DNA from: Paractinoplanes maris
GTDB taxonomy: Bacteria > Actinomycetota > Actinomycetes > Mycobacteriales > Micromonosporaceae
Assembly: GCF_023544465.1 (NCBI RefSeq)
Contig: NZ_JALPVL010000006.1
Coordinates: 434,001 to 498,000, forward strand
Length of the DNA stretch: 64,000 nucleotides
Direction of reading: 5' to 3'
Position 1 is the stretch's first letter. Each line of letters opens with the position of its first letter. Shown piece after piece: positions 32,180 through 36,936 of the stretch. The position numbers were made by a program, and so were the translations under genes. A model generated the notes under the pieces. It worked only from the letters and a program-made list of their open reading frames with translations. It did not search any database and was not told where the DNA came from.

Positions 32180-33907
32180 GTGAGCAACACGTTCCAGGTC
32201 GACCTCCGGGGCATCGTCGACCTCCTCAGCCATCACCTCTACGCGAGCCCTCGTGTCTACGTCCGCGAGCTGCTGCAGAACGCGGTCGATGCGATCACCG
32301 CAGCCGGCGGGCCCGGCCTGATCGCGATCACCACGGGCCCCGGCGAGCTGCGCGTGACCGACAACGGCGTCGGTCTGACCGAGGTCCAGGTGCACGAGCT
32401 GCTGGCCACCATCGGCCGCAGCTCCAAGCGTGACGAGCTCGGTTTCGCCCGCCACGAGTTCCTCGGCCAGTTCGGCATCGGCCTGCTCTCGTGCTTCCTG
32501 GTGGCCGACGAGATCCGGGTGCACACCCGCCGGGCCGGCGCCGAGCCGGTGCTGTGGACGGGTTACTCCGACGGTCGCTACGCCGTCGCCGCCGGCGACG
32601 ACCGCGAGCCGGGCACGACGGTCACCCTGCTGCCGCGCCGCGGCTCCGAGCACCTTCTTTCCGGTACGACGGTGCGCGAGCTCGCCGAGCTCTACGGCTC
32701 ACTCCTCCCGGTCCGGGTCGAGGTCGACGGGGTCGCGGTCACCACCGGCGCCCTGCCGTGGCCCGATGGCGACCTCCCGGCGTACGCCCAGGAGATCTTC
32801 GGTTTTCGCCCGCTCGACGTGGTGCCGCTCGACGTGCCCGAGGCCGGCCTGACCGGGGTCGCCTTCGTGTTGCCGACCCCGGTCAACCCGGCCGCCCGCG
32901 GCGGCCACCGCGTCTATCTCAAGAGGATGCTGCTGGCTGAGAACGTCGAGGGGCTGCTGCCCGAGTGGGCGTTCTTCGCCCGCTGCGTGGTCGACAGCAC
33001 CGAGCTGCGGCCGACCGCGAGCCGCGAGGCGCTCTACGACGACAGCCTGCTCGCCGACACCCGCGAGGCGATCGCCGACCAGCTGCGCGGCTGGCTGGTG
33101 CGGCTGGCCTCGACCGACCCCCGTCGCCTGGGCGAGTTCCTGGCCATCCACCACCTCGGGGTCAAGGCCCTCGCCCTGCACGACGACGAGATGTTGCGGC
33201 TGGTCGAGCAGTGGGTGCCGATGGAGACGAACCTCGGCCACCTCACCCTGGCCGAGTTCCGCCAGCGGCACGGCGTCCTGCGCTACGCGGCCGGCGACGA
33301 CGAGTTCCGCCAGCTCGCCCCGGTCGCCGCCGCCCAGGATCTGGGTGTGATCAACGGGGGCATCGTCTACAACGCCGACATCGTCGAGCGTCTGGCCACA
33401 GTGGATGCCGAGGTTCGGGCCGAGCGGCTCGAGCCGGCCGACGTCGCAGCCCGCTTCTCGGCCCTCGACGCCGAGACCGAGCTGCGGCTGCGCCCGTTCC
33501 TGACCGTGGCGCAGCGCCGCCTCGACCGGCTCGGCTGCGAGGTCGTGGTGCGCGGTTTCGACCCGGCCGGCGTCCCCGCTCTCTATCTGGTGAGCCGCGC
33601 CGCCGCCTTCAACGAGCAGTTCACCGCGAGCCGCGACGCCGCCGACGACCTGTGGGGCGGCGTCCTCGACGCACTGTCCCGCACGGTGCCGACCGACCGG
33701 CCGCAGCTGGTGCTCAACCACCGCAACGCCCTGGTCCGCCGGGTCACCGCGATCGGCGACCCCGAGCTGGCCGGCCTGGCCGTCGAGTCGCTCTACGGGC
33801 AGGCGCTGATGATCGGCCACCACCCGATCCGCCCGGCCGACGCCGCGTTGCTGACCAGTTCGTTCATGGGCCTGCTCGACCGGGCCGTCCCGGGGGAGGA
33901 TCGATGA
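32180..33907 (+). CDS. Hsp90-family (HtpG-like) ATPase
   Basis: 575-residue protein with a GHKL ATPase head of the Hsp90 type: RELLQNAVDAITA (catalytic Glu and Mg-binding Asn), VTDNGVGLTEVQV, FLGQFGIGLLSCFLVADEI and GTTVTLLPRRG. The middle part includes the VYLKRMLLAENVEGLLPEWA and RPTASREALYDDSLL segments typical of HtpG. It is somewhat shorter than classical HtpG and diverged in the C-terminal half. The start is GTG 32180. Its stop overlaps the ATG of a 1010-residue TPR protein (ATGA), so the two are translationally coupled. It could be a chaperone with a dedicated TPR partner or an Hsp90-like module of a stress or defence system; the sequence does not decide. Confidence 0.9.
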   Translation: MSNTFQVDLRGIVDLLSHHLYASPRVYVRELLQNAVDAITAAGGPGLIAITTGPGELRVTDNGVGLTEVQVHELLATIGRSSKRDELGFARHEFLGQFGIGLLSCFLVADEIRVHTRRAGAEPVLWTGYSDGRYAVAAGDDREPGTTVTLLPRRGSEHLLSGTTVRELAELYGSLLPVRVEVDGVAVTTGALPWPDGDLPAYAQEIFGFRPLDVVPLDVPEAGLTGVAFVLPTPVNPAARGGHRVYLKRMLLAENVEGLLPEWAFFARCVVDSTELRPTASREALYDDSLLADTREAIADQLRGWLVRLASTDPRRLGEFLAIHHLGVKALALHDDEMLRLVEQWVPMETNLGHLTLAEFRQRHGVLRYAAGDDEFRQLAPVAAAQDLGVINGGIVYNADIVERLATVDAEVRAERLEPADVAARFSALDAETELRLRPFLTVAQRRLDRLGCEVVVRGFDPAGVPALYLVSRAAAFNEQFTASRDAADDLWGGVLDALSRTVPTDRPQLVLNHRNALVRRVTAIGDPELAGLAVESLYGQALMIGHHPIRPADAALLTSSFMGLLDRAVPGEDR

Positions 33908-36900
33908 AGACCGCCGACGAGCTCTGGGATCTCTTCGAGCAAGCCCGCACACTGCCGCACGGGGCGGCCCAGATCGCGCTGACCGAGGAGGTGCTGCGGC
34001 ACGCCGACACGACCGGCGACCCCCAGCTCGCCTTCGCCGTCCGCCAGCTGGCGACCAATTCCTACATCTACGGCGGCGAGCCGGCCAAGGCGTTCGTGAC
34101 CTTCGCCTGGGCGCTCAACGACTTCGACCGCAACCCGGGCCCGCATCACGCGCAGGGCAAGCACACGCTGCTGTGGCACTTCAAGACCATGGTCAACGCG
34201 ATGCTCAACTTCCCCGAGATCCCGCTGCCGCGCACCCGGGCCGTGCTCGACGACATGGAGCGGCGTTACCGCGAGGACGGCCACAGCCTGCAGGCGGTCT
34301 ATAAACACCGCTACCTGATCGCCGACCACGTCGGCACCCCCGACGCCGACGAGTGGTTCGCCCGGTGGCAGGCCGCGCCGCGCGACGATCTCTCCGACTG
34401 CATCGGCTGTGACCCGTCGTCGGTCGCCGTCTTCTATGCCGAGCGCGGCCGGTGGGCCGACGTGATCGCCACCGCCGAGCCGGTGCTGGCCGGCGAGCTG
34501 AGCTGCAGCGAGCAGCCGCAGGGCATCCTCCGTCAGCTGATGGTGGCCTATCTGCGCACCGGCCGGCTCGACGAGGCAGCCGACGCGCACCGCCGGTCCT
34601 ACCGTCTCGAGCGCGGCAACCTGGCCGACCTGTGGAATCTCGGCACCCACCTCGCGTTCTGCGCCCGCACCGGCAACGAGCACCGCGGCCTCGAGATCCT
34701 GCAGCGCCACCTCGACTGGCTCGACAAGGCACCGTCGCCCGCAGCCGAGATGCACTTCTCGGCCGACGCGGCGATGCTGTTGCGCCGGCTCACCGAGCTC
34801 GGGCACGGCGACGCGGTGATCCGCCGTCGTGACCGGGGAGACAGTTCCGCCGCCGAGCTCGGCACCGAGCTGTCGGCCCGGGCCATCGAGCTGGCCCAGC
34901 TCTTCGACAAGCGCAACGGCACCGACCACCAGAGCCGCTTGATCACCGCCGATCTCAGCACCGAGCCGTACGAGGTGACGCTGACGCTGTCGCCGACCGC
35001 CCGCCGCCCGGCCGCGGTCACCGTCCCGGCGCCGGCCGCGGAGTCCGCCGGGCCGTCGGCCGCGCTGGCTCCCGCTGTGCCGGCTCCCGCTGTGCCGGCT
35101 CCCGCGGTGCTGGCTCCGGACGTGCCGATTCCCGCTGAGGCCACCGCCGCCGAGCTGCTCGACCTGGCCCGACAGCTCGACCAGGCCGACGACGACGCGG
35201 GACTCGCCGCCGCCCTCGAAGCGCTCGACGCCCGCTTTCCCCAGCTCGCTTATGTGCAGCTCGGTGACGCGCAGGCTGATCACGTGCAGGGCGGTGACGC
35301 GCGGGCTGGTGACGTGCAGGGCGGTGACGCGCGGGCTGGTGACGTGCAGGGCGGTGACGTGCAGGGCGGTGACGTGCAGGGCGGTGACGCGCGGGCTGGT
35401 GACGTGCAGGGCGGTGACGTGCGGGGCGGTGACGCGCTGCTTGCCGCGCGTCGGGAGGTGCTGCTCGGCAATCAACTGCGGGCGCCCGGTCGTGACGACG
35501 CCCGCGGCCACTGGGACCGGGCGGTCGAGCTCTTCACCGTCGCCGGTGCGGCGGGTGAGGCCGGGGTCCTGCGGGCCCGCCTGGCGATGGAGGCCGGTTA
35601 CGCCGGCGGCGAGGTCGACGACGACGAGCCGATCCGGGCCGACGTCGCCTATCAGGATGAGCACGGCGGCCCGCGCGAGCGCGCCCACGCCTGGTTGCGC
35701 CTGTCGATCCTGCACTTGATGCAGGGCCGGCCCGAGGAGGCGAACGAGGCAGGCGACCGCGCCGACGAGTTCGCCGCCCGGACCGGCGACGCGCGCCTGG
35801 TCGCCATGCACGCGATGTTGCGAGCCCGCAGCCGCATGGCGATGCACCGCCACGAGGAAGCCGTGGAGAGCGCCCGCGAGGCCTGGGAGTTCTACCGCCA
35901 CCACGGCCCGGCCCGCCGGATCGCCGAGGCCGGCACGATCTTCGGCCACACCGTCGGCGATCCGGCCGAGCAGGTCGAGGCGTTCACCGCGGTGCTGGCC
36001 ACCGGCGAGGCCGACAAGGCCCTGCCCGCACGGGTCGGCCGCGGCAACGCGTTGCTGCACCTCGGCCGGCCCGGCGAGGCGATCCCCGACCTGGTCGAGG
36101 CGGTGGCGTTGTGCGCCGAGGCGGGCCTGGAGGCCGGCGGTGCGCACGCGCGCGGTGATCTGGCCAACGCCTATCGCCTGGCCGACCGCCCGGTCGAGGC
36201 GGCCGAGGTGGCCGAGGAGGCGCTCGCGCTGTTCGAGCAGCTCGGCGATGACGACTCGGCCGACAACACCCGATATCTGCTCAGCGGGCTCTATCAGACG
36301 ATCGGCGACAAGGACGGCGCCCTCGCGCTCTATCGCATCCTCATCGAGCATTTGGCCGGCAACCCGGCGGGTCGCGGCCAGATCGCCGAGGAGGCCGCCG
36401 GCTTGCTCTTCGACCTCGACCGCGACGCCGAGGCGGCCGAGACGTTCCGGGCTGCCGCCTCGGCCCTGCACGAGGCGGACGACCTGATCGGCGAGCTGCG
36501 GGCCTTGCGCCGGGGTGTGGCCGCCCTGCACTTCGCCGACCAGCCCGAGCAGGGTGAGAAAGCTCTCCGGATCATCGCTGAGAAGTTCGGCGCGCTGCCG
36601 CCCGAGCTGGCCGTCGATCCGAACGCGGTCTTCCAGTGGTCGATGACCGCGTTCGAGGCCGGTAACCTGTTCATGTCCCGGGGCCGATATGCCGAGGCGC
36701 TGCCGCACCTGCGCGGTGCTCCCGAGCGGTTGCGGGCCATCGGTGCCACCGACCAGGCCGATCGCGTCGAGGGCATGCTGGGTGAGGCGCTGTTGCGGGC
36801 CGGTCAGGCCGTCGAGGCCGAGGCGCTGCTCCGGGCGCTGATCGAGCGCCTGCCCGCTGACGCTCCGAGCCGCGAGGTCGCCGTCCGCGTGCACCAGGAG

Positions 36901-36936
36901 GCGCGGGCCGAGGTCGAGGGTCGTTCCACATCCTGA
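33904..36936 (+). CDS. Large tetratricopeptide-repeat protein coupled to the Hsp90-family gene
   Basis: 1010 residues, starting [20 protein letters not shown]. Two helical TPR blocks (about 1-340 and 515-1010) are joined by a Pro/Ala-rich linker and a Gly-Asp repeat. TPR-like units include [22 protein letters not shown] pairs and [39 protein letters not shown] and [18 protein letters not shown]. No enzymatic motif or membrane segment is seen. The ATG overlaps the preceding Hsp90-family stop by four bases. TPR proteins act as Hsp90 co-chaperones in eukaryotes, so a functional pair is a reasonable inference. The frame is open upstream through the Hsp90 gene, but that part is Arg/Pro-rich out-of-phase sequence. 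Confidence 0.88.
35277..35434 (+). repeat. 15-bp tandem repeat inside the TPR gene
   Basis: About ten units of ggtgacgtgcagggc or ggtgacgcgcgggct, coding GDVQG or GDARA, follow each other without interruption around residues 458-510. The copies are nearly identical in DNA, not only in protein, which indicates recent slippage or unequal exchange. Confidence 0.9.

What the first reader, a model, noticed from the sequence alone, without database searches (positions are those of the whole stretch)
32180..36936. Coupled Hsp90-family/TPR two-gene unit
An Hsp90-type GHKL ATPase and a 1010-residue TPR protein overlap by ATGA, so they are translated together and probably form a complex. In eukaryotes TPR proteins are Hsp90 co-chaperones, but in bacteria HtpG normally works without dedicated TPR partners. 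The unit is set off by a terminator upstream and a TetR gene downstream, with no other protein-folding genes near. It may be a specialised chaperone pair, or an Hsp90-like ATPase module of a stress or anti-phage type. What is seen: overlap, ATPase motifs, TPR blocks. The rest is inference.
Basis: partly seen in the sequence, partly recalled or inferred. Interest (0 to 1): 0.7.

Follow-up and report, generated by a model that had tools for sequence, protein, structure and literature searches.

The report
Hsp90 paralogue with dedicated TPR partner
A second, non-standard bacterial Hsp90 chaperone is, in nearly all copies examined, encoded directly before the same kind of helical-repeat partner protein, and in this bacterium's family the pair often sits behind a DNA-damage-type promoter, which suggests a bacterial chaperone with its own partner used in genome-damage stress.

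Summary
Confirmed: a 575-aa Hsp90-family ATPase (32180-33907) and a 1010-aa TPR protein (33904-36936) overlap by ATGA. The ATPase is not ordinary HtpG but belongs to the NF010683 'HSP90 family protein' clade; a canonical htpG lies elsewhere in the genome. The pairing is real: 131 of 133 copies examined are followed directly by a homologue of the TPR protein, and in 394 actinomycete genomes both genes occur in 45, Hsp90 alone in 1, partner alone in 4. Listeria and Paenibacillus records carry the pair. The partner's conserved part is its N-terminal 350 residues, with three near-invariant cysteines; the C-terminal TPR array varies. New here: a published PafBC (DNA-damage) promoter motif ends 7 nt before the start codon. 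It precedes 50 of 81 Micromonosporaceae operons against 4 of 1217 control genes, but few copies elsewhere; the same pattern in this genome precedes recA, xseA, DNA polymerase IV and pcrA. Best reading: an Hsp90 paralogue with a dedicated helical-repeat co-chaperone, DNA-damage-inducible in this family. Binding, function and induction are inferred. A defence role is not supported by what was tested.

The parts
32113..32157 (+). hairpin between the rhodanese gene and the unit (terminator-like; few T after it)
   Evidence: z -4.07; not listed by the scan
32150..32172 (+). PafBC / RecA-independent DNA-damage promoter box TTGTCGG-N10-TACCTT, ending 7 nt before the GTG start (probably a leaderless transcript, inference); overlaps the end of the hairpin
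   Evidence: published motif TGTCGG-N10-TA-N3-T in PMC8151990 (passage seen)
32180..33907 (+). Hsp90-family ATPase of the NF010683 clade, 575 aa; predicted fold matches full-length Hsp90s
33904..36936 (+). helical-repeat partner protein, 1010 aa, overlapping the Hsp90 gene by ATGA
33904..34956 (+). conserved N-terminal solenoid of the partner (residues 1-351) with C166, C169 and C201
35254..35434 (+). in-frame 15/30-bp minisatellite in the predicted disordered linker; absent from the seven close relatives compared
35419..36930 (+). C-terminal TPR superhelix of the partner (residues 506-1009)

Best explanation
The two genes encode one chaperone machine. Gene 1 is a full-length Hsp90 paralogue, distinct from HtpG, with an intact ATP site. 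Gene 2 is its dedicated helical-repeat partner: the conserved N-terminal solenoid docks on this Hsp90, and the variable C-terminal TPR superhelix recruits clients or other factors. Co-translation gives matched amounts. In Micromonosporaceae, and in a few other lineages, the operon is switched on by the PafBC DNA-damage regulator, so the machine acts on proteins made or damaged during genotoxic stress. Shown: gene anatomy, family, predicted folds, recurrent pairing, promoter box. Inferred: ATPase activity, binding, division of labour, clients, induction.
Against: No interaction, activity or induction was measured. Tree-distance correlation Hsp90-partner (0.942) is little above Hsp90-TetR (0.908) and Hsp90-HMG-CoA lyase (0.912) in 62 loci. 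The promoter box is missing in many lineages: 31 of 81 Micromonosporaceae operons lack the published form; outside that set 7 of 52 have it against 7 of 393 control genes, and 0 of 15 in the largest Streptomyces clade; PMC9380542 (passage) reports that the M. smegmatis PafBC motif seemed not conserved in S. venezuelae. Simple patterns found no heat-shock or SOS element in the loci scanned. The 81 loci are related, so the counts are not independent. Partners without this Hsp90 exist.
Confidence: 0.6

Rival explanations
1. The Hsp90 is a private folding chaperone for the partner: the TPR protein is an obligate client and the real effector, not a co-chaperone.
For: Partner genes exist without this Hsp90 in 4 of 49 partner-bearing genomes, and two further genomes have an extra partner copy with no Hsp90 in the 15 kb fetched (L206, L207). 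In two orphan loci (L202, L206) the partner gene overlaps a YbjN-domain gene instead. The partner is large with a disordered linker.
Against: The partner is predicted as two regular solenoids, a scaffold type, and the family searches found no catalytic domain. The divergent Hsp90 L189 has a different TPR protein overlapping it by 4 nt, as expected if the Hsp90 needs a TPR partner rather than one client.
Confidence: 0.2
2. An anti-phage or other conflict module built on a GHKL ATPase and a TPR sensor.
For: PADLOC matches of the ATPase N-terminus to TmtA and a type II restriction enzyme model, and a marginal TPR match (E 0.0067) of the partner. The related enteric pair is sporadic: 149 of 5426 E. 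coli genomes. Both proteins match PHROG families of unknown function. Some large phage records (Prevotella Lak phages, an Acinetobacter phage) hold Hsp90 relatives at about 24% identity; these were not inspected.
Against: The PADLOC matches of the ATPase end by residue 129 of 575, the shared ATPase fold. None of ten neighbours has a PADLOC match at 1e-5. A TetR gene follows the pair in 67 of 81 Micromonosporaceae loci, amid metabolic genes; a large Streptomyces clade has other shared neighbours. No effector domain found. The three phage-collection records inspected are two short unverified contigs and a Salmonella genome contig.
Confidence: 0.08
3. The two proteins are merely co-expressed for a shared stress condition and do not interact.
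For: Tree covariation only slightly above that of control neighbours; no interaction data.
Against: Adjacency persists in 131 of 133 copies while other neighbours change between families; the two E. coli islets inspected hold only the two genes.
Confidence: 0.1

Closest known systems
NF010683 / PRK14083 'HSP90 family protein' (by inference Group C HTPG of Chen 2006, PMC1525184; 'hsp90C' of Press 2013, PMC3708813; passages seen)
   Same: The ATPase is a clear member by curated score.
   Different: In the passages seen these papers give no partner gene; Press 2013 says hsp90B and hsp90C are ignored throughout its analysis. That our clade equals Group C is my inference: S. coelicolor has two copies in different groups, and actinobacterial copies fall in Groups A and C.
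Canonical bacterial HtpG
   Same: Hsp90 fold over residues 5-568 and ATPase residues.
   Different: Below the HtpG model cut-off; separate branch; the HtpG loci examined lack the partner and the promoter box.
Eukaryotic Hsp90 with TPR co-chaperones (Hop, FKBP51/52; recalled)
   Same: An Hsp90 with a TPR-repeat partner.
   Different: No MEEVD tail in the 74 listed; the conserved partner domain gives no TPR match over a cut-off; the C-terminal solenoid matches LGN-type TPR best.
PafBC regulon of mycobacteria (PMC8151990, PMC8223512, PMC6789036; passages seen)
   Same: Promoter box with the published sequence and exact spacing; the pattern also precedes recA, xseA, DNA polymerase IV and pcrA here.
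   Different: HtpG and Hsp90 are not named in the main text of PMC8223512, nor HtpG in PMC8151990.

Membership tests
NF010683 HSP90 family protein | score over the curated equivalog cut-off | tested here: met
   755.2 bits against 455
NF010683 HSP90 family protein | grouping with other members, apart from HtpG | tested here: met
   20 chosen members against 21 HtpG, support 100, quick tree with some long branches
Hsp90 superfamily | GHKL ATP-binding residues and catalytic middle-domain arginine | tested here: met
   E30, N34, D61, G63, G65, G96, G99, G101, R282 invariant in 74 sequences; aligned with HtpG; role names recalled
Hsp90 superfamily | N-terminal, middle and C-terminal domains | tested here: met
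   model aligned over 6-573 with full-length TRAP1 and 5-568 with HtpG; dimerisation itself not testable
Hsp90 superfamily | ATP hydrolysis and chaperone activity | not testable with these tools
   needs purified protein
Canonical HtpG | score over the HtpG equivalog cut-off | tested here: not met
   146.8 bits against 371
MEEVD-type TPR co-chaperone system | Hsp90 ends in MEEVD | tested here: not met
   none of the 74 listed C-terminal tails, the window's included
MEEVD-type TPR co-chaperone system | carboxylate-clamp residues in the TPR domain | not tested
   no comparison made
PafBC regulon | TGTC(GG/AG/AC)-N10-TA-N3-T upstream of the operon | tested here: met
   window 32150-32172; 50 of 81 against 4 of 1217
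PafBC regulon | a PafBC regulator in the genome | tested here: inconclusive
   tandem WYL-domain frames at C3:306580 and 307678; no PafBC-specific model run
PafBC regulon | induction by DNA damage that depends on pafBC | not testable with these tools
   needs expression data
Anti-phage defence systems (PADLOC) | match over the length of a defence protein model | tested here: not met
   only the ATPase N-terminus matches, up to residue 129; the partner has one marginal match to a TPR model, E 0.0067
Anti-phage defence systems (PADLOC) | defence genes as neighbours | tested here: not met
   0 of 10 neighbours at 1e-5

The most novel reading that the evidence does not exclude
Bacteria have an Hsp90 system with its own dedicated co-chaperone. 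An ancient Hsp90 paralogue is all but obligately paired with a solenoid protein carrying a conserved three-cysteine (metal or redox) site, in more than one phylum and unrelated to the MEEVD-TPR system of eukaryotes; in some actinobacteria it has been drawn into the PafBC response, giving a chaperone arm to the DNA-damage response.
Probability: 0.45. Interest if true: 0.82.

Novelty: new variant of a known kind. Interest (0 to 1): 0.63.

Why it matters
The abstract of PMC7688965 states that bacteria lack an orthologue of the TPR co-chaperone Hop (start of abstract seen). A conserved two-gene unit of Hsp90 plus solenoid would give a minimal bacterial case for how Hsp90 acquires partners. It would also give an Hsp90 paralogue clade that PMC3708813 set aside (passage) a functional handle: a DNA-damage link that can be tested with a promoter fusion and mitomycin C.

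Tried and rejected
Identifying the geldanamycin-resistant S. hygroscopicus 'HtpG' (PMC3603443, PMC4060131; passages) with this clade through its E88G/N92L positions: none of the 132 copies counted has G at the first position, and 8 of the 11 canonical-type sequences printed also have L at the second, so undecided. The FASEB paper itself is not held.

Covariation as proof of interaction: r 0.906 over 129 of 131 pairs (L188 left out, and one partner cut short by its contig end), but controls in 62 loci reach 0.908 and 0.912 against 0.942; not used as evidence of binding.

Imperfect copies kept in the counts: the G571 match covers only profile positions 215-600, and the G483 match holds a TGA; six of the partners run off their contig ends.

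Heat-shock and SOS elements: simple patterns for LexA, HAIR, CIRCE and sigma-B/R/E type sites gave nothing in 500 bp upstream of the window copy; in the 52 copies from other genomes only three sigma-R-like matches, in L183, L186 and L187; the 80 loci were not scanned for these. Six patterns gave nothing in four enteric, Listeria and Paenibacillus loci. Sigma-70 scan: 0 promoters.

Viral contigs: three scans found no relative. PDB profile search with the partner N-domain gave six weak matches, mostly designed or repeat proteins. The N-domain was not modelled alone; the fold search of the whole partner mainly tested residues 513-1010, so its fold class is untested.

The enteric second gene (769 aa) matches the partner profile only weakly (6.4 bits among 4 sequences) and TPR_12 below its cut-off: its kinship with the partner is not established.

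Literature: ten searches in an open-access library; none of the titles and abstract starts listed describes the pair. Subscription papers and supplements were not searched. PMC10393277 and PMC3534079 (passages) name lmo0942 only as a heat-shock gene in a list and as the gene next to fri; PMC11804915 gave no passage for the motif terms.
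Full report
What is there. The window is G000:C28:434001-498000 of a 9.35 Mb genome; its Hsp90 is closest to those of Actinoplanes/Paractinoplanes (up to 94% identity). The Hsp90-like gene runs 32180-33907 and the TPR gene 33904-36936; they share ATGA. Upstream stand a rhodanese gene (31205-32113) and a strong hairpin; downstream a TetR gene, a biotin carboxylase, an HMG-CoA-lyase-like gene and, further on, a carboxyltransferase.

The pairing. 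I examined 133 copies: the window, the 80 best of 275 loci that one search found, and 52. A homologue of P0002 follows directly in 131. The exceptions are L090, a metagenome bin, and L189, the most divergent copy, which instead has a 297-aa protein with two TPR matches over cut-off, again overlapping by 4 nt. The 131 comprise 80 four-nt overlaps, 9 one-nt overlaps, 41 starts within 60 nt and 1 at 61 nt. The copies fall into 20 single-linkage clusters at 75% identity, so the sample is redundant but broad. In the same 394 class genomes, Hsp90 (E up to 1e-100) is in 46 and the partner N-domain (E up to 1e-10) in 49: both 45, Hsp90 only 1 (G419), partner only 4 (G171, G204, G565, G641), neither 344. 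Two of the 45 also have an extra partner copy with no Hsp90 in the 15 kb fetched (L206, L207). As a control, none of 26 canonical HtpG loci has the partner, though 25 of these loci are at most 5.3 kb long. Genes flanking the pair differ between families; only the partner is shared, in 130 of the 132 loci where the gene caller found the Hsp90. Seven genomes carry two copies; in six, all of one family, each Hsp90 type keeps its own partner type; the seventh (G624) is uninformative.

Outside actinobacteria. Listeria monocytogenes NCTC7974: 'HSP90 family protein' next to fri, then two tandem partner homologues. Paenibacillus cellulosilyticus: ATGA overlap again. Salmonella Infantis SARB27 carries a related Hsp90 (248 bits to our profile) followed 2 nt later by a 769-aa TPR-like gene, and 149 of 5426 complete E. 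coli genomes hold a 77%-identical stretch; in the two E. coli loci inspected the islet holds just these two genes between fdhD and yiiG. Kinship of the enteric second gene with our partner is not shown.

Promoter. Seven nt before the GTG ends TTGTCGGTCGTTCGCGGTACCTT (32150-32172). PMC8151990 (passage) gives the PafBC motif as TGTCGG, TGTCAG or TGTCAC, ten bases, TA, three bases, T. Within 200 bp upstream this motif is found in 50 of 81 Micromonosporaceae operons against 4 of 1217 other genes in the same loci; at ten other spacings (6-9, 11-16) the count is 0. In the 52 other copies it is 7 against 7 of 393 control genes. By cluster: 51 of 75, 5 of 7 in one Streptomyces-family clade, and the single copy L179; 0 in the other 17. 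With the relaxed pattern two of four copies of a further cluster join, and canonical HtpG loci give 0 of 24. Distances from box to start codon differ between lineages (6-8, 28-60, 75-132 nt) while the box geometry stays fixed. In this genome TTGTCR-N11-TANNNT has 42 sites against 9 for the reversed pattern. I looked at 30 of the 42; 23 have a gene within 300 nt downstream; 15 of these went to family searches, 13 gave a match, and 7 are of DNA-repair or recombination type: recA, AlkZ-like glycosylase, xseA, PD-(D/E)XK nuclease, Hel308-like helicase, pcrA, DNA polymerase IV (the helicase and pcrA reach the locus ends and are below their full-length cut-offs). Tandem WYL-domain genes, candidates for PafBC, lie at C3:306580 and 307678. 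So the box is probably functional, but induction is unmeasured, and many lineages with the pair lack it.

Mechanism. I think the N-domain binds this Hsp90 and the TPR array extends its reach, making a two-protein chaperone machine raised in genotoxic stress in this family. Binding and clients are inferred. The three cysteines could be a zinc or redox site (inference). Covariation of the two trees is only slightly above that of control neighbours. Partner genes without this Hsp90 can overlap a YbjN-domain gene instead (L202, L206), so a client/effector role for the partner is a live rival.

Defence. The PADLOC matches of the ATPase touch only its N-terminal fold, and the partner has one marginal TPR match; no neighbour of ten matches at 1e-5; the surroundings in this family are mainly metabolic. 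In a large Streptomyces clade the neighbours look like recG, rsmD and coaD (my reading of the sequence starts printed, no family search). Sporadic presence in E. coli keeps the idea alive there.

Known or new. The Hsp90 clade is named and catalogued; PMC1525184 reports S. coelicolor with two HTPG copies in different groups and PMC3708813 sets hsp90B and hsp90C aside (passages). I found no description of the partner, the pairing or the DNA-damage link in the listings of the ten searches named under Tried and rejected or in the passages seen. I call it a new variant of a known kind.

Noticed in passing
window 35254-35434: In-frame 15/30-bp minisatellite (about 60 residues of [10 protein letters not shown] repeats) in the predicted disordered linker of the TPR protein; absent in the seven close relatives compared.
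   Followed up: partly
G000, 42 sites (list); L213-L242: Candidate PafBC regulon of this genome, including recA, xseA, DNA polymerase IV, pcrA, an AlkZ-like glycosylase, a PD-(D/E)XK nuclease, a GCS2-family ligase and a YloV-type gene.
   Followed up: partly
L202:6471-8548, L206:6507-8557, L194:4319-9036: Partner homologues without Hsp90 beside them: in L202 and L206 the gene overlaps a YbjN-domain gene by 4 nt; in Actinomyces oris (L194) a YbjN gene and a weaker YbjN-like gene lie upstream.
   Followed up: partly
L191:5175-8354 and L192:5595-8969 (same genome, contigs C26 and C4): Two proteins of 1059 and 1124 aa with an N-terminal HD-CE domain and an Hsp90-like ATPase stretch (Pfam HATPase_c_3 in the first; profile match in both), another kind of GHKL protein.
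   Followed up: no
L181 (G624:C1:3667646-3681436): The partner here has a second, weaker N-domain match in the same frame, and is followed by a 1051-aa AAA/TPR protein.
   Followed up: no
L196 (MT837560.1) and L248 (OR847147.1): Short unverified 'phage' records that carry the pair or a partner match; they may be bacterial DNA filed as phage.
   Followed up: no
window 41349-42944: A chaplin-domain (ChpA-C) gene lies between HMG-CoA-lyase-like and carboxyltransferase genes.
   Followed up: no
window 5798-6100, 11768-12069, 37616-37801: Further tandem repeat arrays of 59, 24 and 44 bp units; the scan lists 35 rows in this window.
   Followed up: no
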